DNA of 64,000 bases from a virus, in IMG/VR virus record IMGVR_UViG_3300018080_000002, positions 93,358-157,357 of that record; one strand, given 5' to 3'. Positions 35,380 through 58,842 of the stretch are shown piece by piece; within the stretch, counting starts at the first letter, position 1; every line of letters begins with the position of its first letter. The notes below the pieces were generated by a model. It was not told the DNA's origin. It saw only the letters and a program-made list of their open reading frames with translations, and did no database searches. The translations under genes were made by a program, and so were the position numbers.

Positions 35380-35380
35380 T

Positions 35381-35701
35381 ATGGCAGAAAAAATTACGAA
35401 CAATTCTCAATTGCATTTTGCTACGTTGTTTAATGTTGATTCGGTAAATTTTTGGGATTTACCTGGTTATCCAACCATAATTCCTCAAGACGACGATTTA
35501 ACTCATACGGTTAGCTCAGATGAAGTCGCTAGGGTAGATTTAATTGCTTACGATTATTACGGCGATTCTGAGTTATGGTGGGTTATTATGTTAGCAAACA
35601 GCAAACAGGATATGAGTGCCTTTAGTATGGGTGAACAGATTACTATTCCTGCTCCGAGGTATGTCACGGAATTGATCGGGGATAGAAAAAGAGGGGATTG
35701 A
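35381..35701 (+). CDS. baseplate wedge/LysM-like protein (gp53-like)
   Basis: 106 aa. ARVDLIAYDYYGDSELWWVI then MLANSKQD and EQITIPAP are the LysM/gp53-type signature (Y-YGD-LWW-I-ANN...I-IP). Such proteins bridge baseplate and hub. Follows the tape measure by 1 nt and precedes the hub gene, the usual order. Confidence 0.8.
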   Translation: MAEKITNNSQLHFATLFNVDSVNFWDLPGYPTIIPQDDDLTHTVSSDEVARVDLIAYDYYGDSELWWVIMLANSKQDMSAFSMGEQITIPAPRYVTELIGDRKRGD

Positions 35702-35702
35702 T

Positions 35703-37232: not shown

Positions 37233-37236
37233 TATC

Positions 37237-38313: not shown

Positions 38314-39002
38314 TGGGTGCAAAGGATAAATTCATAGATGCGATTATCAAACTGAACTCCGAAGGTCTCGAAGGTGATGCGAAGGATAATGCTGAGAAAG
38401 ATGCGGAGGCAGAGGCGAAAGCGATTTCGTCGGCTATGCTATTGATGAAAATTCCTCCAGGCGCAATTTGCTCAGAGATGACGATTAGTGGTGCTCCTGG
38501 AGGCGTAAAAAACACGTCTTTGATAAAGTTGGTGGATGCAACTCAAGCAGCTCAAGTACTTAAGTCTGCTTTAGTCGGAATCAATTCTGGAGGTCCACCA
38601 TCGGGTGCATCAAAATTGGTTGGTTGGGCTGAGAAATATGCCGATGCAATTAAAGATTTATGCACAAGCGTTGGCATCCCGAAAGGTTCGATTATTGAGA
38701 ATCCTGCTCCAGCTACAATTACTGTTCCTAACCTACCGTTTCCAATTGCAGATTTAACTGGTGCTTTGGCAAAATTTCAGACAGACTACGTAAAAGTTAA
38801 AAAGGGTGATACGACAGATCCATCTGCGATTGCGAGTATATCGGGGTGGGCTAGTCAAGTTGCATCTGCTATAAGTGCTTTTATGATTACGTTAACCGTA
38901 CCGCCTGGTGTTGGCTTTCTTACGATTTCACAACCCGTACCGCCTGGACCTCCGATTGCAGGCATTCCGAACCCCGTTCCATTGCCTTTGGCAGATTCAT
39001 AA
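38313..39002 (+). CDS. hypothetical spike-proximal protein, Pro-rich ends
   Basis: 229 aa. Two similar halves: helical segments separated by Pro/Gly strands (IPPGAICSEMTISGAPGG, TVPPGVGFLTISQPVPPGPP). Ala-rich helices as in the spike C-terminus. No PAAR repeats. Starts on the spike stop (overlap). It may be a spike-tip or baseplate adaptor. The 14-bp repeat is in its first third. Confidence 0.6.
   Translation: MGAKDKFIDAIIKLNSEGLEGDAKDNAEKDAEAEAKAISSAMLLMKIPPGAICSEMTISGAPGGVKNTSLIKLVDATQAAQVLKSALVGINSGGPPSGASKLVGWAEKYADAIKDLCTSVGIPKGSIIENPAPATITVPNLPFPIADLTGALAKFQTDYVKVKKGDTTDPSAIASISGWASQVASAISAFMITLTVPPGVGFLTISQPVPPGPPIAGIPNPVPLPLADS
38416..38429 (+). repeat. 14-bp hairpin repeat, copy 4
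   Basis: CGAAAGCGATTTCG, here read in another frame (A-K-A-I-S) than in copies 2, 3 and 5, so conservation is at DNA level. Confidence 0.8.
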
Positions 39003-39012
39003 TGTTGTAATG

Positions 39013-39042
39013 TTGTTTCAATGTCGTGTATTGTGATAAAAT
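39013..39042 (+). promoter_or_regulatory. candidate extended -10 promoter before gp25-like gene
   Basis: TTGTTT at 39013-39018 and TAAAAT at 39037-39042 with an 18-nt spacer, and TG one base before the -10 (TGATAAAAT). It lies in an 80-nt gap before the baseplate wedge operon. By eye only. Confidence 0.35.
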
Positions 39043-39082
39043 TAACTCAATTGTTACATCGTGTTTACTCAAGGCAGAATAA

Positions 39083-39451
39083 ATGGCAAAGTATCGAGGG
39101 TTAGCATTTCCAATTCAGAAAGGATCTGATGGCTATCCAAAGATGGTTGAAGATGATGAATTGGTATGGAACGATGTAAAGGCATTGTTCAATACTAGAC
39201 GAAGAGTTCGGGTTATGCGTCCAACCCTGGGCATGTTGCTAGAGGGTATTGTTTTCGATAATACCGGACCATTATTGAATGCTAAGGCTTATAGAGAGAT
39301 TGCTACAGCGTTGGCTAGTTTTGAGCCAAGAGTGACTTTGGAAAGTGTTGGTATTGCAGATGAGGATACTACGGTGACGATTGAAACCATAATCAGCATA
39401 AATGGGTTTAAGTATAAATTGACTCATGCAGTTAGCAGAAATAGGGTGTAA
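39083..39451 (+). CDS. baseplate wedge gp25-like protein
   Basis: 122 aa. GLAFPIQKGSDGYP, VWNDVKALFNTRRRVRVMRP then LGMLLEGIVFDN and EPRVTLESVGI are the gp25/W family pattern (R-x-x-R-x-M-P-x-Y/L-G), start of sheath assembly. First gene after a promoter-like gap. Good match in length. Confidence 0.9.
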   Translation: MAKYRGLAFPIQKGSDGYPKMVEDDELVWNDVKALFNTRRRVRVMRPTLGMLLEGIVFDNTGPLLNAKAYREIATALASFEPRVTLESVGIADEDTTVTIETIISINGFKYKLTHAVSRNRV

Positions 39452-39453
39452 AT

Positions 39454-41781
39454 ATGGCTGTGACGAGTGCTGTAGATGCGTTAACCAGAGTAAGGTATGT
39501 AGGTCAGGATTTTCAGACGCACGTTAATGAGTCTACGGAATTTCTAAAGACCAAGTACCCTGATGAGTATAACGATTGGGTTGATAGCAATGCTGGTATA
39601 GCCCTGATTCAGTTAATTGGTTATACGGCGCAGGGTTTGTCTTTCTATATGAACAGACGAACCACTGATATTTACATGAACACGGCTCAAACTCCTTCGG
39701 CGATTTCTAAAATTGCTAGGATGTTGAACTACACGATAGAGGCTGCTTCGTCTGCATCGGCTGATATTGTGGTCACTCTAAAAAATGGTCCATACACCTA
39801 TCCTATCACGATCAGAAAGGGCTTTAGATTCTCCGGTCCTAATGGGTTGATTTTTGAATATAGAAACAATGAGCCTATTGTTTACAGTCCTGGAGAGACC
39901 GAAAAAACCTTTACGGTTTATGAGGGTGAGACTAAAGAGAACACCTTTGTTTCTGATGGCACAGAGAATCAGAAATTTTCTCTGGTTGGTGTCCCTGAAG
40001 AAAATTATTTGATCGGAGCTTCCACAGAGGTATATGTTCAGAACCAATTGTGGAGTGAAAGAAACCAGATCCCTTATGCGATTGGTGATTTTTATGAAAT
40101 AGATTATGTCAGTGAGCCTCCTACGATCAAATTTGGGGATGGTATTGCTGGATCGATACCCGACTCTGGATCAGAGATTCGGGTTATTTTTATTGTCGGC
40201 AGCGGTCGTCAGGGACGGATTGGTAGCGGTCTGATATCTACGTCATTAGATGCGTTAGTGGTTCGCAATGAGACTGTTGAGCTTGAGGTTAATAACCCTA
40301 GCCCGTCCAGCGGTGGTGATGATTACGAAGATCTTAGAAAGGTCAAATCACTTGCTCCTGAGTTTTTTCAATCACAAGATAGGGCTATCTCTAAACGAGA
40401 TTACGATGCGATTGCTAATACTTATCCAGGTGTCGCTAAGTCTAATGCGTACATAGTCAGGGGTATTGACGACGATTACACTATCAATTTTTATCTTGAT
40501 AGAATCGTAGCGACAGTAAATGAGGGTGTCAGTGGTATCATTGACGATTCTCAGGCTTATCTTGATATTATTGAGAGTAATGCGAGTGCCATCAATGAAG
40601 CTGTTGATGACATGGAGACAGATATTTTAGCCGTAGTCAATCCAATCATTACGAATATTAAGACTGAATATTCGACAATGGCGACTGAGGTGTCTGGCGT
40701 TGTAGATCAAATGATTAGCGACATCTCGACTTATTGGACTGGCGTTGAGAGTGATTTGTCGGATATCGAGACAGCGACAGATGCGGCAATTACTACTCAG
40801 GAAAAAGAGGTCACTTTACCTCAATCGACAATTATTTCTTTGGTGCAGCAAATAAACGACACGGTGTCTGGTTGTGGATCTGGAGTTACCACTCAGGTTG
40901 CATCTCTTGGAAATGAGATAAACAGCGAAGTGGCGGGGATACGCACAGGGGTAAGGACTGGAGCGGAAACTCTTGATACTGCTGTGAATGCGTTAACAGC
41001 TTCGATAAGGTCTAGGATTGGAGATATCCAGACCGAAATAGATGATCTTAATAGCGAGATTGATACTGTTATTACCGCTAGAGGGACTAATATTGATACG
41101 TATCTCGATAGTATCCCGACAACGATTTCGGCTTTTGTGCTGGATTTTCAAAACTCAGTAAGTGGTAATGTCGAGAATATCAATGATGCTGTTAGCGGTA
41201 TTGACCAAGTATATAAGAGTCATTCTACGGACATTATTGAGAGTGTTGAATCTGATGTTGATGACTTAAAAACGTATCTTGGAGAGACATTATCGACCTC
41301 ATGCTCATCTAATACCGTTGAGGTTCAGGTTTTACAGGTTGACGCGAACAATACTTATGTGGCTCCTACATCTGGTTTGCTGGAATCGTTAAGGAGTCAT
41401 TTGCAGGAAAGAGCCGATGCGGTGCATGTTGTTAAAACGATAGATGGTTCGATTGCGATTGTTCAGGTTGATTTAGAGGTGAGAATTAAAGTGGCTGACG
41501 ATGCTATTCAGGCTGATGTCAGGGATAGGGCTGAGCAGTCTTTGGTTAAGTATGACGATCAACCGTATGGTCTTTTAGTGTTGCGAGATTATGGAGATAG
41601 CCTCTATAAATACGAGATTCAGAAAGCTGTTAGGGATATTCAGTTGAGAGATACCGATGTGGAGTATGCTAATATTGATATTACTTACCCGACATCGAAA
41701 TTGGATTCTGCTGGCAATTTAATTATTGCATCAAATGAAGTAATTGTTCCGAGGACAATAACTGTTGCGGCTATTTTATAA
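39454..41781 (+). CDS. baseplate wedge gp6/gpJ-like protein with long helical insert
   Basis: 775 aa. The N-terminal SNAGIALIQLIGYTAQGLSF then YMNRRTTDIYMNTAQTPSAI and PPTIKFGDGIAGSIPDSGSE, with RAISKRDYDAIANTYPGV, match gp6/J. The C-terminal AIQADVRDRAEQSLVKYDDQ and GDSLYKYEIQKAVRDI also fit. Between about residues 355 and 630 lies an unusual helical insert (Ile/Ser/Thr/Asp-rich, e.g. MATEVSGVVDQMISDISTYW) with five VSG motifs, probably a long coiled coil. The wedge function is clear; the insert is not standard for the family. Confidence 0.85.
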   Translation: MAVTSAVDALTRVRYVGQDFQTHVNESTEFLKTKYPDEYNDWVDSNAGIALIQLIGYTAQGLSFYMNRRTTDIYMNTAQTPSAISKIARMLNYTIEAASSASADIVVTLKNGPYTYPITIRKGFRFSGPNGLIFEYRNNEPIVYSPGETEKTFTVYEGETKENTFVSDGTENQKFSLVGVPEENYLIGASTEVYVQNQLWSERNQIPYAIGDFYEIDYVSEPPTIKFGDGIAGSIPDSGSEIRVIFIVGSGRQGRIGSGLISTSLDALVVRNETVELEVNNPSPSSGGDDYEDLRKVKSLAPEFFQSQDRAISKRDYDAIANTYPGVAKSNAYIVRGIDDDYTINFYLDRIVATVNEGVSGIIDDSQAYLDIIESNASAINEAVDDMETDILAVVNPIITNIKTEYSTMATEVSGVVDQMISDISTYWTGVESDLSDIETATDAAITTQEKEVTLPQSTIISLVQQINDTVSGCGSGVTTQVASLGNEINSEVAGIRTGVRTGAETLDTAVNALTASIRSRIGDIQTEIDDLNSEIDTVITARGTNIDTYLDSIPTTISAFVLDFQNSVSGNVENINDAVSGIDQVYKSHSTDIIESVESDVDDLKTYLGETLSTSCSSNTVEVQVLQVDANNTYVAPTSGLLESLRSHLQERADAVHVVKTIDGSIAIVQVDLEVRIKVADDAIQADVRDRAEQSLVKYDDQPYGLLVLRDYGDSLYKYEIQKAVRDIQLRDTDVEYANIDITYPTSKLDSAGNLIIASNEVIVPRTITVAAIL

Positions 41782-41793
41782 TGGGGTTTTGTT

Positions 41794-42234
41794 ATGCCTG
41801 AAACTATGTTGAACAGATATACATATCCAGAATGGGATGCTAAACCGTATTGGGATGTTATAAAGAGTTTTTATGGAGAGCTAGATGTAGCTGTTTATCA
41901 GGCAAAAAACAGGGATCATGCTTTCCTATGTGGGGGTGGATCTCTAACTTGGAACCCGTTGACGTTTACGTTTGCGTGGACGGATGATTTTAAAATTCCA
42001 TTGGTTATGTCTGGCTTTGTTACTAGCGTAGAATATGGTCCTAATGGTACGAGTAGATCTGCTGCAATTCAATCTGGCGAATGTTTGTACTGCGTATTGC
42101 CGACACAAGTAACTGCAAACGTTACTAGAAATGCTGCTGTTGCATCGACTTTATCGAACACCGATAGTAATTTCGTTATTGCTTATAACTGCGATAATAT
42201 TTTGTATGTCCGTAACGGTCAGATTTTAACTTAG
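41794..42234 (+). CDS. hypothetical baseplate protein
   Basis: 146 aa. MLNRYTYPEWDAKPYWDVIK at the start, then a beta-rich region with GSLTWNPLTFTFAWTDDFKI and a short end DNILYVRNGQILT. Similar short end strands (VFRNGYVLQDG) occur in the fibre at 43568. It is between wedge and gpI, so probably baseplate periphery. Confidence 0.6.
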   Translation: MPETMLNRYTYPEWDAKPYWDVIKSFYGELDVAVYQAKNRDHAFLCGGGSLTWNPLTFTFAWTDDFKIPLVMSGFVTSVEYGPNGTSRSAAIQSGECLYCVLPTQVTANVTRNAAVASTLSNTDSNFVIAYNCDNILYVRNGQILT

Positions 42235-42244
42235 GGGATCAGTA

Positions 42245-43102
42245 GTGGCTGGTGGATTTGGAAATCACCCATTTGGAAATGCTCCGTTTGGTAGAGGCGA
42301 CTACTCTCAGGACATTCTGGTAGCCAATTATCCGAGAGAATATTACCAGGATGAGGATGATGTAGAGAATGATCCTGCATATCATTATTTGACTGTTGCG
42401 AAAGAGTCTTTGGACTCTAGGTATGCTGAGGTGGATGCTATGAATACGTTGATGGCTCCATTGGAGATGCCATCAGGTTTGATTCCGTATTTAGCAGATT
42501 CGATCGGTGTAGGTGTTAATGATTATGAGCCTGAAGGGTTTCAGAGATCCATCGTTAACAATGCGGTTAGGTATTACACATTAAAAGGGACGTCTACTGC
42601 ATATAGTATTCGGGGGTTAATGTCTGGTTATGAAGTTGAAGTTTTACAGATGTGGCAAGTTACTCCTGATATTGCGAGTGGAATTGATGACGAATATTTG
42701 AGGCGAATAGGTGATAATTTTTATTCAGAATTAAATCCTACGGAAGTGAGCGGTGTAAGTGGCGATATCCCGTATTATGGAAATTGTGATTTTTGTTTGA
42801 CTGCGTTTGTTGGTATCGTAATGACTTTGAGGCGGGAAGCTCCAGAGGGATACAATGTGTATGTCTTAGACAGGACATTGGATGCTATTAAATCGATTAT
42901 GCCGATTCATGTCCGAGAGTTATTTCTTGAATCGAAGTTGATTTTCAAGGATATTGATATGGCGATTGAAGAAATAAATCAAGAATTTGAAGAAATCTCT
43001 TACAGGAATGTGGGTGTTAATTATTATTACGATTTATGGCCTGCTGATGTGGTTTCGACTGACGTTGGCATAAATGTTCGTGGTTATACACAGGAAATAT
43101 AG
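42245..43102 (+). CDS. tail protein I-like baseplate protein
   Basis: 285 aa. Gly/Phe-rich N-terminus (GGFGNHPFGNAPFGRGDYSQ), then LMAPLEMPSGLIPYLADSIG and the repeated gpI pattern RSIVNNAVRYYTLKGTSTAY followed by SIRGLMSGYEVEVLQMW. gpI-type proteins connect gpJ to fibres. GTG start preferred (GTGGCTGG at 42245) with AGGGGATC upstream. Contains VSGVSG near residues 173-178. Confidence 0.75.
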   Translation: MAGGFGNHPFGNAPFGRGDYSQDILVANYPREYYQDEDDVENDPAYHYLTVAKESLDSRYAEVDAMNTLMAPLEMPSGLIPYLADSIGVGVNDYEPEGFQRSIVNNAVRYYTLKGTSTAYSIRGLMSGYEVEVLQMWQVTPDIASGIDDEYLRRIGDNFYSELNPTEVSGVSGDIPYYGNCDFCLTAFVGIVMTLRREAPEGYNVYVLDRTLDAIKSIMPIHVRELFLESKLIFKDIDMAIEEINQEFEEISYRNVGVNYYYDLWPADVVSTDVGINVRGYTQEI

Positions 43103-43111
43103 AGGAACACA

Positions 43112-43558
43112 ATGGCTGTATTAGTAGGAACAATTACTGATGTTGGTCGCAGGAGACAGGCTGAATCGTTTATAAGCACTCTTGCTGGCTACGATGTTTT
43201 AAGTTTGAAATATTTCAAGATTGGTGAGGGTGGTTGGATTTCAGATGGAGTATCTAAGATACCCAAAAATCCTAATCCATCTTTGACTGATATTGAGGCA
43301 GACGGAACGCCTGGTAATACCTACGTTCAGAAAGATTTGACTGCTGATAAGGTCCAGTTTATTTTGCCATCCACAGCACAAGTGGAATGTACGTTAGAGA
43401 TGACTGAAGGTAACGATAACGGATACGGTGAAGCTCCTCAGTATTTTGAGATTGGATTGTTTGACGAACAGGACAACATGATTGTTTATGCGACTTTTCC
43501 TGGTGAGACAAAGAACGATGTGAAGATATTGAGACACTTTTTGCTGTGTGTATTCTAG
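43112..43558 (+). CDS. fibre-associated baseplate protein
   Basis: 148 aa. ALKYFKIGEGGW-like (YFKIGEGGWISDGVSKIPKN), PSLTDIEADGTPGNTYVQKD, and QYFEIGLFDEQDNMIVYATF is a pattern of tail-fibre N-terminal or adaptor domains in large phages (EIG-x-FD-x-x-x-x-M-x-x-Y-x-TF). Precedes the largest fibre gene. Function as adaptor is inferred. Confidence 0.65.
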   Translation: MAVLVGTITDVGRRRQAESFISTLAGYDVLSLKYFKIGEGGWISDGVSKIPKNPNPSLTDIEADGTPGNTYVQKDLTADKVQFILPSTAQVECTLEMTEGNDNGYGEAPQYFEIGLFDEQDNMIVYATFPGETKNDVKILRHFLLCVF

Positions 43559-48814: not shown

Positions 48815-50293
48815 ATGGCAACTAGAACGTATATTACCTGGGAAGATGGCTATAAACGCCGTCCCTCCAACACTGATACGGTAGATTTTTCGAGCATTAG
48901 AATTGGTGCATCTCTTTTAGAAATTAAAGAAACTGCTGGTCATTTTGATTTTTCAGCAAAAAAATTAGTAAACGTGGCTCCAGGCGGGGTCAGTGGTGAG
49001 GCGGTTGAATACGGTCAGTACAATACTGCTTTAGGTTTGAAGGAAGATACGGCAAATAGAGGATCGGCAAATGGCTACTGTCCTCTTGATGCGAGTAGCA
49101 AGGTTCCTGCTGTAAACCTTCCAAACGCGATCATGGAGTACAAAGGTACATGGAACGCAACGACCAACACCCCGACACTTGCTGACGGTGGTGGAAATGC
49201 TGATGAAGCGATTGGTGATGTTTATCGTGTAAGTGTTTCGGGTACTCAGGACTTAGGTTCTGGATCTATTGATTTTGACGTTGGTGACTATGTAATTCTC
49301 AATGCCAGTAAGGTTTGGGAAAGGTCTCCTGGTGGTGATAATGTTGATTCTGTCAATGGTCAGAGCGGTGTTGTTGTTCTCGATACTGATGATATTGGTG
49401 AAGGTTCAACCAATAAGTATTACAGCGAGACGTTGTTTAATAGTAGCTTTAGCGGCAAGTCCACGGATGATCTAACTGAAGGATCAACGAATAAGTATTA
49501 TAGTGAGACTCTTTTTAATTCCAGTTTCAGTGGCAAGACGACTACTGATCTGACGGAAGGAGATAACAAATATTACACCGCAGCTCAGGCTAGGTCGGAT
49601 CTTATTACCCAGGTCATAACCGATGGTGTGACGGGTACTGCTCCGAGTGAAGATGCTGTTTATGACGCATTAGCTCTTAAGGCTGCTGCTGATCATAACC
49701 ATGATGGTGTTTATTCTCCTGTAGGTCATGACCATAGTGGTGTTTATGCTCCTATCAGTCATAACCATACGGCATCTGATGTCACCGATTTTAGTGCTGC
49801 TGCCAAGGCTGCGACTATTTCTCAGGTGATTACGGATGGTGTAACAGGTCTTGCACCAAGCGAAGATGCTGTTTTCGATGCGTTGGCTCTCAAAGCTGAT
49901 TTGACCGATGTATCGGCTCCAAAAACCACTTTGACCAACAAAGAGGGTGGTGAGATTACGATTCGTCAGGTTTGCTATTTGACTGCTGCTGGTGAGGTAA
50001 ACCTTGCTCAAGCGAATGACAGTTTGAGTCTAGCGACTGCGTTCTACATGGTTGAGGATGCTTCGATTGCAAATGATGCGTCTGGTGAGTTCTATATGCC
50101 TGATAGGGGTACTGAGGTTGATGGATTCTCAGGATTGACTGTAGGATCTCCTATTTATCTCAGTAGGTCATCTGCTGGTGGTTATCAGCAGGATCTTTCT
50201 GGCTTTGTTGCTGGAGAGCATGTTGTAACTCTTGGTAGGGTTGTATCTGCGACCAAGATTGTTTGGAATCCTAAATACGAGTTTGAGTGGTAG
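48815..50293 (+). CDS. tail fibre with HNHDGVYSP repeats
   Basis: 492 aa. AADHNHDGVYSPVGHDHSGV then YAPISHNHTASDV gives the G-x-H-x-H-x-G-V-Y fibre repeats common in phage tail fibres. DDLTEGSTNKYYSETLFNSS is repeated three times just before, and TQVITDGVTGTAPSEDAVYD twice around them. The C-terminus is the module shared with 43568 and 47979 (VGSPIYLSRSSAGGYQ). A long gap with a hairpin follows. Confidence 0.85.
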   Translation: MATRTYITWEDGYKRRPSNTDTVDFSSIRIGASLLEIKETAGHFDFSAKKLVNVAPGGVSGEAVEYGQYNTALGLKEDTANRGSANGYCPLDASSKVPAVNLPNAIMEYKGTWNATTNTPTLADGGGNADEAIGDVYRVSVSGTQDLGSGSIDFDVGDYVILNASKVWERSPGGDNVDSVNGQSGVVVLDTDDIGEGSTNKYYSETLFNSSFSGKSTDDLTEGSTNKYYSETLFNSSFSGKTTTDLTEGDNKYYTAAQARSDLITQVITDGVTGTAPSEDAVYDALALKAAADHNHDGVYSPVGHDHSGVYAPISHNHTASDVTDFSAAAKAATISQVITDGVTGLAPSEDAVFDALALKADLTDVSAPKTTLTNKEGGEITIRQVCYLTAAGEVNLAQANDSLSLATAFYMVEDASIANDASGEFYMPDRGTEVDGFSGLTVGSPIYLSRSSAGGYQQDLSGFVAGEHVVTLGRVVSATKIVWNPKYEFEW

Positions 50294-50303
50294 AAATATC
50301 TTT

Positions 50304-50337
50304 GTTTTCCGTAATTTACGTCTTGTCGTTTTCCGTA
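50304..50337 (+). repeat. direct repeat GTTTTCCGTA pair
   Basis: Identical 10-bp copies at 50304-50313 and 50328-50337, 24 bp apart, in the 112-nt gap after the 48815 gene. Possibly a regulator site. Confidence 0.4.
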
Positions 50338-50347
50338 CATAGTGTCC

Positions 50348-50373
50348 ACTGAGAGGGGTTATTCCCTCTCAGT
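50348..50373 (+). terminator. strong hairpin without T run
   Basis: ACTGAGAGGG then GTTATT then CCCTCTCAGT: a perfect 10-bp stem, loop of 6. No poly-T follows, so it may be a transcript-processing or stability structure as much as a terminator. Confidence 0.55.
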
Positions 50374-50405
50374 ATCCGTTGCACTAAGCATAGTGGGGAA
50401 TATAG

Positions 50406-50705
50406 ATGGGCAAGCATTTATCACTGATAAATACTGATTCGATAGCAAAGCAGAAACGAGTTGAATCTGCATACACCGATTATGTTTCAGTTGTTACGAA
50501 TGTTGATGGCGAAAGCGATTTCGTCATAGCTGGAGGTACGGTGACAGCCAACGGCAAAATCGATGTGTTAATAAACGGGGTTGTTTATTATGAGGGTGCC
50601 GACACTGAAGAGTGGCAAAGAGATACCGAAAATAATAAGATAGTGACAAACAGAGCGATACCTAAAAATGCCGAAGTAATTGTTCGGCTTTATGAATATG
50701 AGTGA
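50406..50705 (+). CDS. fibre-cluster protein, small beta domain
   Basis: 99 aa. Strands IDVLINGVVYYEGADTEEWQ and NRAIPKNAEVIVRLYEYE match the end domain of 46870 (VFINRGRIFQNRDF ... AVPQNSKVTIRE). Contains the 14-bp repeat near its start (as GESDF). Starts after a 112-nt gap. Probably a fibre tip or cap. Confidence 0.6.
   Translation: MGKHLSLINTDSIAKQKRVESAYTDYVSVVTNVDGESDFVIAGGTVTANGKIDVLINGVVYYEGADTEEWQRDTENNKIVTNRAIPKNAEVIVRLYEYE
50510..50523 (+). repeat. 14-bp hairpin repeat, copy 5
   Basis: CGAAAGCGATTTCG inside the 50406 gene, read as G-E-S-D-F-V. Confidence 0.8.
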
Positions 50706-50713
50706 GGTAGGCG

Positions 50714-51490
50714 ATGCCTGGTAGTAGCCCTTATACCTATAATAGACCGACTGATATCCTAGCCGATGAGATTTTAGCGCGGTTAGGCAATGACGGTACG
50801 AGTTTATTGAAGGATTTATTGAACCGTTTGCATCAAGCATTTGGCTTTCCTGTTGAGATTAGAGCGCAAGATCCAGCGTCTAAACAGGTTAATGTCGGAG
50901 TTGGAATATACACCATGCCTGATGGTCAGAGGGTCATTCTCTATGAGGAGGGTGAGGTTTCTGATTTGGCCTCTGGTGTTATTGATTTCGAGGCGGGAGA
51001 GATAACAGCGGGATCGGTTTCTGGTTTCAGTTTACCGTCCATGACTGCTGGTTATTATATTCGGTCGCTAGTTTCGTATGATGCGATCGATAATGCTTTC
51101 GATGTTACGTTTGGGGATGAGGCATCTAGTTTAGATGTGGCAGAGTTTCCCAAGCCTACTGGAAGATATGAGCCTCTGTATTCTGTTGAGCTTTATAGTC
51201 CTACGAGTGGGGTTGGGAATTGGGATAATATCGAGCAAACTGATATTATCAGGGTTATGAATATAGGGCATACAATATCCCCGCAGGAGGAGGTACAGAC
51301 GGTGTCTGGATCGCCTCAGAGTATTTTTACGCTAACGACAATAGAGATCCCAAATGATCGGAACAGATTGTTTGTTCAATGGAACGGAGTCGGAAAAAAG
51401 AATACAGCATACACGGTGACTGGTGATACTGAGGTGACGTTTTCGCCAGCGGTTCCGGTAGGGGTAGAGGTAAGGTTTATAATTGTTTAG
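50714..51490 (+). CDS. fibre/adhesin-cluster protein
   Basis: 258 aa. Helical start (PTDILADEILARLGNDGTSL), beta-rich middle and an end similar to the small beta domain of 50406 (RNRLFVQWNGVGKKNTAYTV then AVPVGVEVRFIIV). Two VSG motifs. Likely a fibre component; no receptor domain recognised. Confidence 0.62.
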   Translation: MPGSSPYTYNRPTDILADEILARLGNDGTSLLKDLLNRLHQAFGFPVEIRAQDPASKQVNVGVGIYTMPDGQRVILYEEGEVSDLASGVIDFEAGEITAGSVSGFSLPSMTAGYYIRSLVSYDAIDNAFDVTFGDEASSLDVAEFPKPTGRYEPLYSVELYSPTSGVGNWDNIEQTDIIRVMNIGHTISPQEEVQTVSGSPQSIFTLTTIEIPNDRNRLFVQWNGVGKKNTAYTVTGDTEVTFSPAVPVGVEVRFIIV

Positions 51491-51515
51491 TCGCATAAAT
51501 GAGGCAGGGTAAGTT

Positions 51516-53312
51516 ATGACAATTCAATATTTTCAGTTAGCCGACGATTTCGCCAGGAGTAAAATCCGCAGTTTAATTGGCACACAGTTAAAAACCCAGA
51601 TGTATCTGATTGACGATAAGCTGGATTATCCGTTAGCTGTCGAGATCAGTGGCGATACGGTACAGATTGAGGCTGGAGTTAAACAGAAATATACATCTGA
51701 TGGCACAGATGACGGGGTTAGCGGAACGTATAAATGGAGGTTAGCACCGTTGAATGGTGCTGATGTTCAACCGTCTGCGAGCACATTAGATCTTACGGAC
51801 GGTTCAACGACTGGAGATTTTGCCAATAATCCTGCGACTGGTGTGACGATGACTGCTGGATACCATATTCAGATGGGTATCGAGCTTAGGGATGATGGTA
51901 AACACTATGTTGTTTGGGGTGATGAGTCTGCGACATCTGGAGGGACAACGTTTCCGAGGTTTAATTCGGATGCTCTTTCGGTGATGTTGATTCGTTTGGA
52001 AGATAGCGGAAGTGGGGGATCTTGGAATTTCAATACCCCGGATGATTCCGATGTTGAGATTATGCCTGTTGGTGGAGGTGCTGGCGGTGGAGGCGATACG
52101 AGCTTTAAGCTGGCGTCCATGTCTGGTAGCAGTGCCAATTTCAAAAAGGGCTATATCCGTTGGGATGACGGTATTGTATTGGCGGCTGGAGATGTTTCAG
52201 GTTCAGGGGATTTGGAGGATTTTTCGATAGATCTAACGGATCTCATAGCCAGTCCAGACAACAGTTCAACGTACTGGATGTATATAGATATTACGAAATT
52301 ACCAGACGAGAGAACTTACACCGATAATGGCCGAGAGGTATATCCGGTTTACGACGATTCTCATTTTGTTCTGAGAAAAGACATGCCGTTCATGAATCCA
52401 TCAAGGTTTGTTTTTGTTGGTGGATTTAAGACGCCAGGTTCCGGCAATACTTGGGTTGGATCAGAGTTTTGGTCTGCTGCGACTAGGCTGCATACTCAGT
52501 TTGGTGGTTTTATGGCCTTATGCGAGGTGTTTGAGGATACCTCGATTGACGGTGTTTCGGCATCGGTTGCATTGGAGCATGGTTTCAATCCAGATAGACC
52601 GCAGTTGGTGGAGATTGATTTTTACGATGATTCCACAGGCAAGCAGTATCCGCTGCTAAATACTAGCCATGTGTTAGATATAAACACGACGAATATCGTT
52701 GTAAATTCGCTAGGTTTGACATTTGATAGCGGCGACTATTTAGTGGTCAAAGCTTACAGGCTGCCAGAGTTACCGAATACGGTTCTGGATGCTACGAGGG
52801 TTTTTAGATCTTCATGGTACACCGATACATCGACGACTCAAGAGGCTCATGGATTAGATGATAAGCATGAGATTGTGAGTGCTGTTCTTTTAGAATGGGA
52901 TGTGGTTTCAGGCACTATCCGAGAAATCGATCAGGCGAGCTTGGTGAAATGGTGGGATGATGATAACATCTATTATGACTGGACTGGATTGAGTCCATCA
53001 GCCAACCTGAAATATCGGGTGATTACGTCTCCGACCGCTCAACCGTATGCGAAACCGTTCAAAGGAAATGTTTTTACGTTCACCGATGGAGCTACGTTGA
53101 CAAATGTTACGACAGCGTTCCCTTGTGATAAATTGTATTTTGATTTTCCGTTTAGCATACGAGCTGTTCAGAAAATGACGAATGGCTGGCAAAATGTGGA
53201 TAATATTGGTGCATTAGTCTGGGTGACTGATGATGTGAATAAGTATTTGAGGGGGGATATTTCGAGCTTGTCTCCGACATCGACGTACCCCGTCAAGATA
53301 ATGATCGAGTAG
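51516..53312 (+). CDS. large fibre/adhesin protein
   Basis: 598 aa. Beta-rich, with Gly-rich linker GGGAGGGGDTSF near residue 190, W-x-D-D and YY-D motifs, and three VSG. The N-terminal part (FQLADDFARSKIRSLIGTQL) is helical and might be a tail-attachment domain. No S74 or enzyme motif. Ends just before the first signal-peptide fibre gene. Confidence 0.65.
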   Translation: MTIQYFQLADDFARSKIRSLIGTQLKTQMYLIDDKLDYPLAVEISGDTVQIEAGVKQKYTSDGTDDGVSGTYKWRLAPLNGADVQPSASTLDLTDGSTTGDFANNPATGVTMTAGYHIQMGIELRDDGKHYVVWGDESATSGGTTFPRFNSDALSVMLIRLEDSGSGGSWNFNTPDDSDVEIMPVGGGAGGGGDTSFKLASMSGSSANFKKGYIRWDDGIVLAAGDVSGSGDLEDFSIDLTDLIASPDNSSTYWMYIDITKLPDERTYTDNGREVYPVYDDSHFVLRKDMPFMNPSRFVFVGGFKTPGSGNTWVGSEFWSAATRLHTQFGGFMALCEVFEDTSIDGVSASVALEHGFNPDRPQLVEIDFYDDSTGKQYPLLNTSHVLDINTTNIVVNSLGLTFDSGDYLVVKAYRLPELPNTVLDATRVFRSSWYTDTSTTQEAHGLDDKHEIVSAVLLEWDVVSGTIREIDQASLVKWWDDDNIYYDWTGLSPSANLKYRVITSPTAQPYAKPFKGNVFTFTDGATLTNVTTAFPCDKLYFDFPFSIRAVQKMTNGWQNVDNIGALVWVTDDVNKYLRGDISSLSPTSTYPVKIMIE

Positions 53313-53325
53313 TGGAGGATGAATC

Positions 53326-54828
53326 ATGAGATATTTTTTACTTTTATTAGCGTTTGTTTCTAGTTTCGCCTTTGCTGCGAGAGAGGATTTTGTAATTCCA
53401 GCAAGGGAGGATGGTGGCAATGTCATTATTGCTCCGAAAGATGCCGGAGGTACGTCAAGGACTTTGTTAACTGCTGATCCTGATGCTCAACAGATAACAT
53501 TTGAAAAAAGTTATTTTAACGCCAATTTAGGTATTGGTGTTGCTCCGACATATCCTTTACAGGTTGCCGGATCTGTTAGGTTTCAGAACTCAGGAGATAT
53601 CACAGATTATGCTCATTTTGGAGTTGGTTCTGATGTTTATTTGGATCTGAAAAAAGATGATGGTAGTAAGATATTCTTAAGTACCGGAGGTAATAGCTAT
53701 ATAGATAGTGGATATAATTTTGGGATTGGGACTAGTTCAGTAGACGAGAAGTTACATGTAGAGACTGCGGCAGATAATACAACAATTAAGATTCAGACAG
53801 GCGCAGATGCTAATGCTGTAGTACGCTTCCAAAATGATACTAAATCTTACCTAACAGGAGTATTAGGCGGCACGTCAGATGCCTGGCACGTCTATGATGT
53901 TGATAATACAGCATCGAGGATGACAGTACAAGCTGATGGCGATGTTATCATAAATCAGAGATTAGCAATTGGCGGCTCCTCTCATGTACAGAGACTTACT
54001 GTAGGAAGTTCCTCGTCAACAACAGTCGAGGGGGCCTATTTTGTAAATGATTCTGGAAATATGACCATGGGGGTTAGTCAAGGCGGTGGTTCCTTGTGTC
54101 TAAATGATTCTGATGGTGCTACTGAACTTTGTGCTAGTGGTCAATTAGAGCTTGGTTCTAATAATACTGTCAGGGCAAAGATCGAAACTGATGGTGACCT
54201 TGTTCTATTGAAACGATTGCTTATTGATAGCGTAGGAGTTCAGCCAGAAATATGGTTGGACACACCATCTGGTTCTTATAATGGTCTTATTGGTTTTAGT
54301 GAAAACGGTGTAGACAAATGGAAAATAGACTACAATTATTCAAGTGAAAATCTATCTATTTATAGTAATACTTTAAGCTCAAATATTTTAGAATTTCAAC
54401 CAGGTGGAAGGATAAAAACTGACTATACTGTTGAAATAAATGAAGGGGTTTTTTCTGATAGATTTGAAAAGTCATCTGGTGCTAGTGGTTCCCACGCTAT
54501 CTTTTCCTTGAGTGGGTTTGCTTCTGTCAATTCTGCAGTTAAAATTGATACAGTAACATCATGCACACATGTATCTACATCGAACTACAGGCTGATTCAA
54601 ACAACACTATTAGATCAGTATGTGTCTAGCACATGGACACAAACAGATGTTCATAGCCAGGGGAATGCTGGAATAGTAGGCTATAGCACCACAGGCGATA
54701 CTATTCAGGCTAGGGTGTATTTGGGTGATGGTATCAATATTGTAAAATGTTCACATTCAGTGAATATAATAGCTACATCTACAGATGGCGCTGGGAACAG
54801 AAACGCTATCACATACACAAGACTATAA
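53326..54828 (+). CDS. fibre-like protein with secretory signal peptide
   Basis: 500 aa. MRYFLLLLAFVSSFAFAARE is a typical Sec signal peptide with an A-x-A cleavage site, most unusual for a tail fibre. The body begins GNVIIAPKDAGGTSRTLLTA and GIGVAPTYPLQVAGSVRFQN, S74-fibre-type beta (G-I-G-x-x-x-P-x-x-x-L-x-V). Unlike the protein at 56727 it ends without a full S74 chaperone; a tiny ORF just after it has an S74-like tail. GGAGG upstream. Exported adhesin or host-surface protein is possible. Confidence 0.75.
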   Translation: MRYFLLLLAFVSSFAFAAREDFVIPAREDGGNVIIAPKDAGGTSRTLLTADPDAQQITFEKSYFNANLGIGVAPTYPLQVAGSVRFQNSGDITDYAHFGVGSDVYLDLKKDDGSKIFLSTGGNSYIDSGYNFGIGTSSVDEKLHVETAADNTTIKIQTGADANAVVRFQNDTKSYLTGVLGGTSDAWHVYDVDNTASRMTVQADGDVIINQRLAIGGSSHVQRLTVGSSSSTTVEGAYFVNDSGNMTMGVSQGGGSLCLNDSDGATELCASGQLELGSNNTVRAKIETDGDLVLLKRLLIDSVGVQPEIWLDTPSGSYNGLIGFSENGVDKWKIDYNYSSENLSIYSNTLSSNILEFQPGGRIKTDYTVEINEGVFSDRFEKSSGASGSHAIFSLSGFASVNSAVKIDTVTSCTHVSTSNYRLIQTTLLDQYVSSTWTQTDVHSQGNAGIVGYSTTGDTIQARVYLGDGINIVKCSHSVNIIATSTDGAGNRNAITYTRL

Positions 54829-54839
54829 GGGGAAACAAC

Positions 54840-54953
54840 ATGAAAACAATATTAATGATCATCGGTTTTTTAATTGTGCAAGAAAACCAGATGATGAAAT
54901 CATGGATATGCAACCAATACGATGCGCCTGAAAAACTATGTGTAAATGAATAA
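54840..54953 (+). CDS. 37-aa protein similar to the C-terminal end of the S74 fibre
   Basis: MKTILMIIGFLIVQENQMMK then SWICNQYDAPEKLCVNE. The second half is close to the last residues of the S74 protein at 56727 (ELMKSWICSQDNAPEALC). The first half also resembles the preceding chaperone helix LSVLIIEEF. So this is either a remnant of a lost S74 domain of the 53326 fibre or a small independent factor. ATG follows AAGGGG. Two Cys conserved. Confidence 0.55.
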   Translation: MKTILMIIGFLIVQENQMMKSWICNQYDAPEKLCVNE

Positions 54954-54963
54954 GGAGATAGAA

Positions 54964-56088
54964 ATGAAAAAGTTGTTTCCATTTATAACGTTATTGGCTC
55001 TGTCTCTTATATCGACAGGAGCAGTAATAAAAGAGAGCAAGCAGGGTGGATCGATTGAATTTTACACGAATGAATCGGGTACTGTTGTTAAAAAAGCCGA
55101 GATTACGGCTGCTGGGAAAATGAAGGTGGATCAAATTGAGAATCTTTCAGGCGGGACACCTCCTGGGATGATTCCGATAGGCGGGATGGTAGCTGTTATG
55201 CCTACAATTCACGCGAACGCTTGGCAGCCTCCAGTAAGCGGGGCCATAAAAGACGGTTTTATGCGTGCTGATGGATGGCAAATCACGGCACAAAACGTCA
55301 CTGACGGATCGTTAATACCAGCCGGAACATATTTACCGAATATGGTTTATATGGTTCCGCGCGGCGATACAGATAGTTGTAATGGCTCATCTGCCTGCAA
55401 TACAAAAACAGGTGGAAGTGATAATGCAACACTGACAATGAATAACATACCAGAGCACAATCACGGAGCGACCGGATTAAGTGGTTCGATGGCCGCAAGT
55501 GAATTTGAGCATAGTCATTCATTGTCAGGAAGTGTTGCAGGTGGAACCGCAAGTTTGACGGGTTCTATAACAAGTGGTGGAGCAAGTTTGAGCGGAAGTG
55601 TTTCTGGGGGAACCGCAAGTGGAACCTTTGCTTCGTCAGGACATACACATGGTTTGGCTTCTGGTGCAGCGGCGATCGGTATGCCTGGAAATACAACAGG
55701 CTATTTAATTTTTTCAAGATCGGGTCAGGCTTTTACTGGCTCATATTATGCATCAATGGCATCAGCATGGGCATCAACAGGAGATAGCCACCTTGGAACG
55801 AACTTAATTGGAACAACCGATGCAAACACGGCGACAGCATCAGTATCATCAACGGCTGCATCGAATGGAACGCTTGGCGTGTCATACACGGCACCAACCA
55901 ATGGAACCCTCGCTGTTTCAAATACCCCTGCAAACAATGGAACGCTCGCAGTTGGAGCCGATAATATTACAACGGCAAGATCGGTTGGGATATCAGGAAA
56001 TACAGCCAACGCAGGGCAAGCCTCTCCAACTGCTGTTGATACGCTTCCTAATTATCAAAAAGTCGTTTGGGTTATTCGAGTATATTAA
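54964..56088 (+). CDS. tail-collar/gp12-like adhesin with signal peptide
   Basis: 374 aa. MKKLFPFITLLALSLISTGA is a Sec-type signal peptide. After SIEFYTNESGTVVKKAEITA comes PIGGMVAVMPTIHANAW and GFMRADGWQI, a collar-domain pattern (G-x-V-x-x-x-P; D-G-W). IPEHNHGATG, FEHSHSLSGS and SGHTHGLASG are H-x-H motifs like those binding metal in gp12-type short fibres. Ser/Gly repeats lie between. ATG 54964 chosen for AAGGAG 6 nt upstream. Exported tail-collar-like protein: odd for a virion part. Confidence 0.75.
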   Translation: MKKLFPFITLLALSLISTGAVIKESKQGGSIEFYTNESGTVVKKAEITAAGKMKVDQIENLSGGTPPGMIPIGGMVAVMPTIHANAWQPPVSGAIKDGFMRADGWQITAQNVTDGSLIPAGTYLPNMVYMVPRGDTDSCNGSSACNTKTGGSDNATLTMNNIPEHNHGATGLSGSMAASEFEHSHSLSGSVAGGTASLTGSITSGGASLSGSVSGGTASGTFASSGHTHGLASGAAAIGMPGNTTGYLIFSRSGQAFTGSYYASMASAWASTGDSHLGTNLIGTTDANTATASVSSTAASNGTLGVSYTAPTNGTLAVSNTPANNGTLAVGADNITTARSVGISGNTANAGQASPTAVDTLPNYQKVVWVIRVY

Positions 56089-56104
56089 ATAGAAAGGATA
56101 TAAG

Positions 56105-56341
56105 ATGAAAGCAAGACATTGGGCAATGTTATCAACATTTATAACCGTTATCGTTTCTCTTGCAATTTTCTTGGTAATATGGGGATTAAAAAATCCACCG
56201 GAACCAAAGAAAGTTGGAGAGTTTGAGATTGAAGGAACAAAGACAACTTTATTCCAAGCAGGAGATTGTCAAATATATGTAACAAAGTGGCAAAGTCAAC
56301 CAGAGCCAAGATTTTTCTTCAGTTGTCCACAACGCAAATGA
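56105..56341 (+). CDS. small single-pass membrane protein
   Basis: 78 aa. One transmembrane helix (residues about 7-28, LSTFITVIVSLAIFLVIWGL) with short basic N-terminus; the outside part has two Cys (GDCQIY, FSCPQ). Could be an inner-membrane spanin, holin-like or an export/anchor partner of the neighbouring exported proteins. No family recognised. Confidence 0.6.
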   Translation: MKARHWAMLSTFITVIVSLAIFLVIWGLKNPPEPKKVGEFEIEGTKTTLFQAGDCQIYVTKWQSQPEPRFFFSCPQRK

Positions 56342-56349
56342 GGTAAAGT

Positions 56350-56718
56350 ATGAGATATTTAATGTTAGTTTTAATGTTAGTTTTAGTAGGTTGTACTACG
56401 TCTAAATTCAAGAAAGACGTATTAGACAATTTAACCTCTACGTTTGCTGGTCATGGTGAGTGTGGAGGTTATGATGATATGCGTGATGATTTAGATAGTC
56501 TTTTAGATAAATCAAAATGTTTAGAGGACAATGAAATTGCTCCTAATTACATGAAAAGTTTACCAGATGGAGTATGGTCAGCTAAGGCTATGTGTTGTTT
56601 TGCTGTTTTACAGGAGTTAGATTATTCTGATAAAACGGTGAAACCTAAAGATAGTTGGAATTGCAAGAAACCTATCGATTATGAAACGGCATTGTTAGAA
56701 TGTCAGAAATTGGAGTGA
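56350..56718 (+). CDS. putative lipoprotein, Cys-rich
   Basis: 122 aa. MRYLMLVLMLVLVGCTTSKF carries a lipobox (LVGC) with acylation Cys15, then Lys/Asp-rich residues and six further Cys (GECGG, SKCLE, MCCFA, NCKK, LECQ), probably disulphide-bonded in the periplasm. May be an outer-membrane-anchored protein, e.g. an o-spanin-like or superinfection-exclusion lipoprotein. Located among exported fibres. Confidence 0.65.
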   Translation: MRYLMLVLMLVLVGCTTSKFKKDVLDNLTSTFAGHGECGGYDDMRDDLDSLLDKSKCLEDNEIAPNYMKSLPDGVWSAKAMCCFAVLQELDYSDKTVKPKDSWNCKKPIDYETALLECQKLE

Positions 56719-56726
56719 GGTGAGTT

Positions 56727-58574
56727 ATGAGAAAATTATGGTTAGCATTAATTTGTTTGCTGTTTACATCGGTAGCGTTTTCCCGTCCTGTGGTGGTGGT
56801 AAACCCAGAGCAGGATGAGGACATTGAGTTTAAGGTGAATGATGGTGGTACTATTAAAGAGGCTTTGAATATAGATGGTGCTACATCTTATGTTAAGGTT
56901 CTTGAGAGACTGGGTATTGGGACTGCGCCATCCGTGACGTTTCATACGGTGGTGTCAGGAAATCATAATATAAGTAGATTGCAGGGTGGTGATTCTAACC
57001 ATACCAGTATCCAGTTGTCAAACTCAGACACTTCTGATTTGTGGGGTTTGGTTAGGGACGGCGGTGATTCTGACAAGTTTAAGATTTACTATAATACGAC
57101 TCCTGGTAATGATTATTTTACAATAAGTACTGATGGAAAAGTTGAGATAGATGGAGCTGGTACTGCTGCATCAGGATATGATTTAAAGGTAAACTCAGTA
57201 GCTACTACTGATGCTGGCGATAACAATTTTATGACTACGTTTTATAACGGGTCTAAAATGATCGGTGGGTTTTATAAAACTCATGCTAATGGGGGTATTT
57301 TAAGCCTTAAGAAAACAGATGGAACATCTAATGGTGTTTGGTTAGCTGGAGGTGCTACTTCCTATTTTGATAATAATGAACAGGGTGTTGCTTTTGGTGA
57401 TGCTGGTAAAGATTCAGATGTCCCGTTTTATTTCAATGCTTATAAGTCTGGTTGTGGTTATGCGTCAGGAGCGAATTACCCGAATGGTACTGTTGCAGCT
57501 TTTAGTAGAGCAGCGACCAACTGTACGGCTGGTATAGCGCAGGTTTATATAACAGGCGGTGGTCCATATGCTTATTTGTATTTAGGTGATCATACGAATC
57601 CATCAAGGGGTGGGATTTTCTACGATACTGATACACTGCATTTGGCTAATGGTGGGAGTGCAGTGAGGATAGATGCGTCTAAAACTGTTGTAGTTAATGG
57701 ATCTAATTTAACTGGTGGTCAGCTTGAGGTACAAAGTACAGGTAATGCTCAATTATCTATAGTGTCTGATAATGACAATAACACAGCGCAGGCTTTTGCT
57801 AGTATTTTCTTTAGTGACTACACTAATGCCAAGGGGGTTATTAGAGGTGACTATGGCGGTGCTAGTGAGGCTTTAAGGATTAACCCTAGTGGATATGGAG
57901 GCAATATATCTCTAGCTGAGGGTGGGGGTAAAGTAGGTTTTGGCGTTAATCCAACGTATTTACATCATGTAGAGTATAACACTAGTACTCGTATGGCTGT
58001 GTTTAAGAATACGAGTACATCTAATGGTCAAATTTTGGGTCTCGAAACAAACATAAATAGTAATTCAAATTTACAACAGATATTTCATATTTATACTCAA
58101 AGAGGTGGTGCTTCAAGTACTGAAATGTACGTTTCCAATAACGGCCAGATTTATGTAGATCCGGATAATTGGGCAACAGGCGGTACTGCAATAGGTGTAA
58201 GTTCAACATCAGGAGGGCATTTAACAACAAGTCCTTCAAGTAGGCGATATAAGGAAAATATAAGTACAGAAAATTTCTATAATGAAATAGATACAAGTAA
58301 GATTTTTGATTTAGAGCCTGTTGTTTTCGATTATAAGGTGGATGGTAGGCATTCCTTTGGCTACATAGCTGAAGATGTTTATCCCAATGTCCCAAGTGTT
58401 GTTTATATTGCAGAGCAAGAGGATGGTTCAAGGCAGATTGAATCTGTGGATTATAGAATGCTGTCAGTGCTCATTATTGAAGAATTTAAAAAGACTAAAA
58501 AAGAAAATGAATTAATGAAATCATGGATTTGTTCTCAAGATAATGCTCCAGAAGCATTATGCGTAGGTTATTAG
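56727..58574 (+). CDS. exported S74-chaperone fibre protein
   Basis: 615 aa. MRKLWLALICLLFTSVAFSR is a Sec signal peptide. After it VNPEQDEDIEFKVNDGGTIK and LGIGTAPSVTFH show the same N-terminal domain as 53326 and 54964. The C-terminal 112 residues (SSRRYKENI, KIFDLEPVVFDYK, FGYIAEDVYP, LSVLIIEEF) are the Peptidase_S74 intramolecular chaperone, which normally cleaves itself before the Ser of SSRR (about 504). Trimeric beta-helix fibre expected. Signal peptide plus S74 recalls adhesive fibres of predatory Bdellovibrio. Confidence 0.85.
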   Translation: MRKLWLALICLLFTSVAFSRPVVVVNPEQDEDIEFKVNDGGTIKEALNIDGATSYVKVLERLGIGTAPSVTFHTVVSGNHNISRLQGGDSNHTSIQLSNSDTSDLWGLVRDGGDSDKFKIYYNTTPGNDYFTISTDGKVEIDGAGTAASGYDLKVNSVATTDAGDNNFMTTFYNGSKMIGGFYKTHANGGILSLKKTDGTSNGVWLAGGATSYFDNNEQGVAFGDAGKDSDVPFYFNAYKSGCGYASGANYPNGTVAAFSRAATNCTAGIAQVYITGGGPYAYLYLGDHTNPSRGGIFYDTDTLHLANGGSAVRIDASKTVVVNGSNLTGGQLEVQSTGNAQLSIVSDNDNNTAQAFASIFFSDYTNAKGVIRGDYGGASEALRINPSGYGGNISLAEGGGKVGFGVNPTYLHHVEYNTSTRMAVFKNTSTSNGQILGLETNINSNSNLQQIFHIYTQRGGASSTEMYVSNNGQIYVDPDNWATGGTAIGVSSTSGGHLTTSPSSRRYKENISTENFYNEIDTSKIFDLEPVVFDYKVDGRHSFGYIAEDVYPNVPSVVYIAEQEDGSRQIESVDYRMLSVLIIEEFKKTKKENELMKSWICSQDNAPEALCVGY

Positions 58575-58638: not shown

Positions 58639-58842
58639 ATGAAAGAGAAATTGTCATTACCTACGTTTGTTGTTGTAATTTTTTTGGCTGGATGTTTGTT
58701 TGGCGCTCATTCTTTGTATTTGCATTTAAAGATTGATAGTGCGCTGTCAAACCATGCTGCATTACAGAAAGGTGTTGAGGGATTTGCCAAACAGGTCAAT
58801 GACGAGTTTAAGAAGCGCCCTGTAAAAGATGACAAAAAATAG
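58639..58842 (+). CDS. small single-pass membrane protein
   Basis: 67 aa. One membrane helix (residues about 8-27, FVVVIFLAGCLFGAHSLYLH) then a basic soluble helix (KRPVKDDKK). Could be an i-spanin or holin-like lysis protein, or a signal-anchored virion partner. Good Shine-Dalgarno AAAGGAG. Confidence 0.55.
   Translation: MKEKLSLPTFVVVIFLAGCLFGAHSLYLHLKIDSALSNHAALQKGVEGFAKQVNDEFKKRPVKDDKK

What the first reader, a model, noticed from the sequence alone, without database searches (positions are those of the whole stretch)
53326..58574. Three fibre-like proteins with Sec signal peptides in a phage tail-fibre cluster
Seen: MRYFLLLLAFVSSFAFA, MKKLFPFITLLALSLIS and MRKLWLALICLLFTSVAFS begin fibre-type proteins (53326, 54964, 56727), which share the domain that follows. 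Phage fibres are normally built in the cytoplasm without export. A lipoprotein and a membrane protein lie between them. They may be displayed on the infected cell (receptor decoy, superinfection exclusion, adhesion) rather than on the virion. Known: predatory Bdellovibrio carry exported S74-chaperone fibre adhesins, so the host may be such a predator, or the genes come from one.
Basis: partly seen in the sequence, partly recalled or inferred. Interest (0 to 1): 0.78.

Follow-up and report, generated by a model that had tools for sequence, protein, structure and literature searches.

The report
Phage-encoded exported tail-fibre-like proteins
A newly assembled, T4-related phage carries, in one run with its ordinary tail-fibre genes, three fibre-like proteins that begin with clear export signals, so they are probably sent out of the infected cell's cytoplasm to act on its surface rather than being built into the virus particle; the host is unknown and nothing has been shown experimentally.

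Summary
The window is the end of a probably complete (124-bp terminal repeat) 157-kb myovirus with a T4-type capsid. Inside its tail-fibre run, genes 53326, 54964 and 56727 start at ATGs with good Shine-Dalgarno sites and encode textbook Sec signal peptides. Between them lie a lipoprotein, a membrane protein and a 37-codon relic of a fourth such gene. Only the 56727 protein has a recognisable S74 chaperone. "Sharing the following domain" is true for 54964/56727, not for 53326. Independent support for export: all six mature products of the island have an even number of cysteines, and exported proteins of the phage are biased that way (13:4 against 74:81). Comparison makes it unusual: the N-terminal module of 56727 occurs in 52 other viral loci, none exported, and 13 of 13 S74 proteins in those viruses are unexported. 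The phage encodes about a dozen other exported proteins. The best reading is fibre adhesins displayed by the infected cell, working like Bdellovibrio MAT fibres. They are not canonical MATs: the ~130-aa MAT N-domain has no room. A Bdellovibrionota host could not be tested; a Bacteroidota host is disfavoured by strong Shine-Dalgarno usage.

The parts
48815..53312 (+). upstream unexported tail-fibre genes (48815-50293, 50406-50705, 50714-51490, 51516-53312), same strand, gaps 112, 8, 25 bp, then 13 bp to P1
   Evidence: phrog_13892 minor tail protein 5.9e-42 for 48815 and phrog_30742 0.002 for 50714; gaps; no signal peptides
53326..54828 (+). P1, 500 aa exported fibre-like protein with one GIGVAPTYPLQV capping-type motif at residue 68; no S74
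   Evidence: weak match to cyanophage structural proteins (about 4e-4)
53326..53376 (+). P1 Sec signal peptide MRYFLLLLAFVSSFAFA, predicted cut A17|A18
   Evidence: sequence
54840..54953 (+). 37-codon relic: hydrophobic start joined to the C-terminal tail of an S74-type fibre (MKSWIC..APE.LC)
   Evidence: 52% identity to P3 residues 578-613, E 4e-9; alignment A5
54964..56088 (+). P2, 374 aa exported protein; start at 54964 not 54946; weak tail-protein similarity; collar-like by eye
   Evidence: SD AAGGAG; phrog_6465 0.012; codon usage most atypical of the three, z -2.5
54964..55023 (+). P2 Sec signal peptide MKKLFPFITLLALSLISTGA, predicted cut after A20
   Evidence: sequence
56105..56341 (+). 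78-aa protein with one N-terminal transmembrane segment and two cysteines in the outer part
56350..56718 (+). 122-aa lipoprotein (lipobox LVGC) with six further cysteines
56727..58574 (+). P3, 615 aa exported fibre with C-terminal S74 chaperone
56727..56783 (+). P3 Sec signal peptide MRKLWLALICLLFTSVAFS, predicted cut S19|R20
   Evidence: sequence
56790..56936 (+). P3 N-terminal module VVVVNPEQDEDIEFKVNDGGTIKEALNIDGATSYV.., found in 52 other viral loci, mostly internal
   Evidence: tblastn down to 2e-10; profile of 47 viral copies 1.8e-16; none exported
58236..58403 (+). S74 chaperone domain of P3 (residues 504-559); Ser504 and Lys509 at the places of the catalytic pair
   Evidence: PF13884 7.6e-06, 4.5e-8; alignment A2
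58458..58565 (+). C-terminal tail of P3 with cysteine pair (602, 612), shared with the relic
58639..58842 (+). 67-aa membrane protein after P3 (64-bp gap)

Best explanation
P1, P2 and P3 are fibre adhesins made by the phage (probably late), sent through the host's Sec system, cut by signal peptidase and folded in the oxidising periplasm. P3 probably trimerises with the help of its S74 domain and releases it by self-cleavage. The mature fibres are displayed on, or shed from, the infected cell and bind an outside partner; they are not virion parts. Shown from sequence: genes, starts, signal peptides, S74 domain, module, operon-like spacing, even-cysteine bias. Inferred: export, trimerisation, self-cleavage, surface display, adhesive role. 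In effect this works like the MAT fibres of Bdellovibrio, but is built from phage fibre modules.
For: Signal peptides with correct starts. All six mature products of the island have even cysteine numbers (4, 2, 2, 2, 6, 4), and the phage's exported set is biased to even (13:4 against 74:81, Fisher p 0.02), as expected for disulfide-bonded exported proteins. P3's N-module occurs in 52 viral loci, none exported; 13 of 13 S74 proteins in those viruses and 4 of 4 in cultured phages with a visible N-terminus lack a signal; seven annotated fibre/spike proteins of Flavobacterium phage immuto lack one. The relic suggests that this gene type existed more than once here. The phage is geared to export: lipoproteins with GH18, CAP, PETase-like and lipocalin domains, an exported SNase, a pair of related exported proteins, one with HEFGH. 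Phage immuto, the nearest annotated cultured capsid relative, encodes a C-type-lectin protein with a signal-like N-terminus, so exported adhesin-like phage proteins have a parallel.
Against: No outer-membrane anchor (no lipobox, no autotransporter barrel) is visible in P1-P3, so the display route is unknown. The genes sit in the virion-fibre run with 8-16-bp gaps, which also suits a virion role. No homologous exported fibre was found in any collection searched. The structure predictions were too poor to use (pLDDT 47 and 37).
Confidence: 0.5

Rival explanations
1. Virion fibres matured outside the cytoplasm: the fibres are exported, form disulfides in the periplasm and attach to virions as the cell lyses.
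For: Same operon-like run as unexported tail fibres; even cysteines; T4 short tail fibres can be added after phage completion (T4 annotation).
Against: No precedent known to me; no shared docking sequence with the phage's other fibres.
Confidence: 0.13
2. Superinfection exclusion or receptor masking: exported fibres bind the host receptor and block further adsorption, as the T5 lipoprotein Llp does with FhuA (PMC9586334).
For: Exported, fibre-type binding proteins plus a small lipoprotein in the same run.
Against: Placed in the structural, probably late run, although exclusion is most useful early; no tip shared with the phage's own fibres.
Confidence: 0.17
3. Uncleaved membrane-anchored fibres or non-functional signals: the hydrophobic N-terminus is a virion-internal or membrane anchor.
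For: Location among virion genes.
Against: All three have n/h/c regions with small-residue cut sites, strong starts, and even cysteines after the cut.
Confidence: 0.08
4. A special form of the best explanation: the host is a predatory bacterium (Bdellovibrionota) and the fibres, carried or copied by its phage, change prey handling. It overlaps with the best explanation rather than excluding it.
For: MAT fibres are exported, mosaic and partly S74-tipped (PMC10769870); the exported hydrolase set would suit a predator; strong Shine-Dalgarno usage, 70% like T4 63% against 4% in a Bacteroidota phage, disfavours a Bacteroidota host.
Against: No host evidence obtained; the MAT N-domain is absent by anatomy; P3's N-module is phage-type.
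Confidence: 0.25

Closest known systems
MAT (mosaic adhesive trimer) fibres of Bdellovibrio bacteriovorus (PMC10769870)
   Same: Signal peptide, fibre body with GIG..P-type motifs, different C-terminal ends, some ending in S74
   Different: Encoded by a phage; no room for the ~130-aa MAT N-domain (fibre motif starts 43-51 residues after the cut in P3 and P1); P3 starts with a phage fibre module
S74 (endosialidase-chaperone) phage tail fibres and spikes, PF13884
   Same: C-terminal S74 domain with the Ser...Lys pair, beta-rich body
   Different: The phage members compared here have no signal peptide
Superinfection-exclusion lipoproteins such as T5 Llp (PMC9586334)
   Same: Phage-encoded exported protein acting at the cell surface (function inferred here)
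   Different: Llp is a small lipoprotein, not a fibre
C-type-lectin protein with a signal-like N-terminus of Flavobacterium phage immuto (NC_055915 10527-11525)
   Same: Phage-encoded, signal peptide, adhesion-type fold
   Different: No S74, not in the fibre run, host with little Shine-Dalgarno use

Membership tests
S74 intramolecular chaperone fibres (PF13884) | S74 domain above the curated score at the C-terminus | tested here: met
   P3 26.6 bits against cut-off 22, residues 504-559; P1 and P2 not matched
S74 intramolecular chaperone fibres (PF13884) | Catalytic Ser and Lys five residues apart (SDxxxK type) | tested here: met
   Ser504-Lys509 (SSRRYK) aligned with the phage homologues; second position Ser, not Asp
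S74 intramolecular chaperone fibres (PF13884) | Trimerisation and self-cleavage | not testable with these tools
   Needs expression; structure model unusable
MAT fibres | N-terminal signal peptide | tested here: met
   Rule-based scan and start-site analysis
MAT fibres | Conserved ~130-aa beta-rich domain right after the signal peptide | tested here: not met
   Judged by anatomy only: GIG..P fibre motif already at residues 62 (P3) and 68 (P1); P3 residues 22-70 are a phage fibre module. No MAT N-domain sequence was at hand for direct comparison
MAT fibres | Diversified C-terminal tips on a common base | tested here: inconclusive
   Three different C-termini; the common base is shared by P2 and P3 only
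MAT fibres | Surface display on a predatory bacterium | not testable with these tools
   Host unknown; genome scans empty
Superinfection-exclusion proteins | Blocks adsorption or DNA entry of related phage | not testable with these tools
   Needs adsorption assays

The most novel reading that the evidence does not exclude
A phage has turned its own tail-fibre modules into secreted, S74-chaperoned surface adhesins that re-equip the infected cell (possibly a predatory bacterium in its prey), or that mature in the periplasm and join virions at lysis: fibre proteins taking the Sec route in a phage life cycle.
Probability: 0.3. Interest if true: 0.8.

Novelty: new variant of a known kind. Interest (0 to 1): 0.55.

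Why it matters
Phage fibres are thought of as cytoplasmic virion parts. A phage that exports several fibre proteins, one with its own folding chaperone, would show phages reshaping the outside of the infected cell with adhesins. It would also suggest a concrete route by which bacterial surface fibres such as the Bdellovibrio MATs could have arisen from phage fibres: gain of a signal peptide in front of a fibre module.

Tried and rejected
(1) Close relatives of P1, P2 and P3 in IMG/VR by exact peptide patterns, and of terminase and tail sheath: none confirmed; these scans need exact 8-residue matches, so distant relatives could be missed. The capsid protein found only a 4.6-kb fragment, 99.96% identical, so of the same virus, in metagenome 3300017991. 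(2) Host by genome scans with the exported HEFGH pair and with S74: both scans spent, nothing confirmed. (3) Opening predator genomes through relatives, E. coli or Silvanigrella plasmid records: not possible. (4) PDB sequence search: P3 only a weak match to a cohesin-domain entry (9e-4), P1 and P2 none. (5) AlphaFold without alignment for the P1 tip and the P3 end: pLDDT 47 and 37, so no fold search was run. (6) Sigma-70 promoter scan: 35 sites against 34.5 expected, uninformative. T4-type late promoter TATAAATA: one copy above contig position 140,000, not at these genes. (7) Bacteroidota host (where, from my own knowledge, exported S74 proteins are also common): disfavoured by Shine-Dalgarno usage. 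(8) No tRNAs in the window, but 18 elsewhere in the genome; they could not be traced to a host. (9) C-tail alignment of P3 and relic against IMG/VR: nothing confirmed.

Full report
What the window is. The window is positions 93358-157357 of a 157,357-bp IMG/VR virus record. The first and last 124 bases agree over at least the first 100 tested, so the record is probably a complete genome. It has a T4-type major capsid protein (phrog_138, 3.9e-72; nearest annotated cultured relative Flavobacterium phage immuto, 32%), a contractile-tail sheath and 18 tRNA genes. A 4.6-kb fragment, 99.96% identical, comes from metagenome 3300017991. No close relative was found in the collections searched.

Observation. 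P1 (53326-54828), P2 (54964-56088) and P3 (56727-58574) are real genes with good ribosome sites and no credible downstream start. Each begins with a positively charged n-region, a hydrophobic core and a small-residue cut site. A rule-based scan of mine (not SignalP) flags 21 of 237 proteins in this phage, about 16 of them credible by eye, against 1.4 in shuffled N-termini; in the 150 kb of T4 scanned it flags 6, none of 300 aa or more. Between P1 and P3 lie a 37-codon relic, a one-span membrane protein and a lipoprotein. The gaps are 8-16 bp and the run continues from unexported fibre genes upstream, so co-transcription and late expression are likely but not shown.

The relic. ORF 54840-54953 joins a hydrophobic start to QENQMMKSWICNQYDAPEKLCVNE, which matches the C-terminal tail of P3 (52%, 4e-9). 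It is best read as what is left of a fourth gene of the S74-fibre kind.

Which parts are shared. P3 residues 22-70 are a module (QDxDIxFKVNDGGT..EALxIDGATS) found in 52 other viral loci (profile E 1.8e-16). In those proteins it is mostly internal and in no case follows a signal peptide (two of the 52 frames run off the contig at the 5' end). P2 carries a weak version, related to that of P3 beyond chance (0 of 5000 shuffles). P1 does not. P3 ends in an S74 chaperone with Ser504 and Lys509 in place. P1 and P2 have no S74.

Is export unusual? In the same viruses 13 S74 proteins were traced to their N-terminus; none has a signal. Four S74 proteins of cultured phages also lack one, as do seven annotated fibre or spike proteins of phage immuto. 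Immuto does, however, encode several other proteins with signals, and one C-type lectin protein with a signal-like N-terminus, so exported adhesin-like phage proteins are not unique to this phage.

Independent evidence of export. After removal of the predicted signals, the products of the island contain 4 (P1), 2 (relic), 2 (P2), 2 (membrane protein, outer part), 6 (lipoprotein, without the lipid cysteine) and 4 (P3) cysteines: all even. Across the phage, exported proteins are even:odd 13:4 and the others 74:81 (Fisher p 0.02). The cut sites and the list of exported proteins were chosen by me, so this is moderate evidence. It is what disulfide bonding in an oxidising compartment would give.

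Context. The phage encodes a wider exported set: lipoproteins with GH18 (6e-43), CAP (1.4e-19), PETase-like, lipocalin-like and collagen-like parts, an exported SNase, and two related exported proteins of which one keeps HEFGH. The GH18 part has no match in 50,697 phage records. Shine-Dalgarno usage is 70% of genes (T4 63%, immuto 4%), so the host is unlikely to be a Bacteroidota, the other group in which, from my own knowledge, exported S74 proteins are common.

Interpretation. The most likely mechanism is Sec export, periplasmic folding, S74-assisted trimerisation of P3, and display or shedding at the surface of the infected cell, where the fibres bind something outside it. It works like the MAT fibres of Bdellovibrio (PMC10769870). 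It is not a canonical MAT: the ~130-aa N-domain has no room before the fibre motif. Rivals are exclusion of superinfecting phage, periplasm-matured virion fibres, and non-functional or uncleaved signals.

Verdict. Surface display is plausible. The predator link remains a lead.

Noticed in passing
L006 18619-19997 (contig 75619-77571): Lipoprotein with a GH18 chitinase-type domain (6e-43); the GH18 part has no match in 50,697 phage records.
   Followed up: partly
L006 2224-3084 and 7873-8976 (contig 59224 and 64873): Two related exported proteins (42% identical), both with a PENDLHLED motif after the signal; one keeps HEFGH, the other has HEFGR.
   Followed up: partly
L003 5535-6571 (contig): Collagen-like lipoprotein next to an exported Cys-rich protein whose end looks like a small outer-membrane barrel strand.
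   Followed up: no
L004 10099-10983, L006 17711-18607, L005 18856-19269: Lipoproteins with PETase-like hydrolase, CAP and lipocalin-like domains.
   Followed up: no
contig 66922-69846 (L006), minus strand: Minus-strand block with an XRE-type regulator by sequence look (68618) whose codon usage is the strongest outlier of the genome (z -9); possibly a recent import.
   Followed up: no
contig 30677-31531, minus strand: Two tandem copies of a ~131-aa gene, 89% identical.
   Followed up: no
contig 31754-43558 and 96673-97650: Sugar-nucleotide and surface-polysaccharide type genes by sequence look (nucleotidyltransferase, epimerases, sulfotransferase-like); not searched.
   Followed up: no
L071 9935-15868 (Flavobacterium phage immuto): Cluster of exported proteins including a C-type-lectin and a cohesin-domain protein.
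   Followed up: partly
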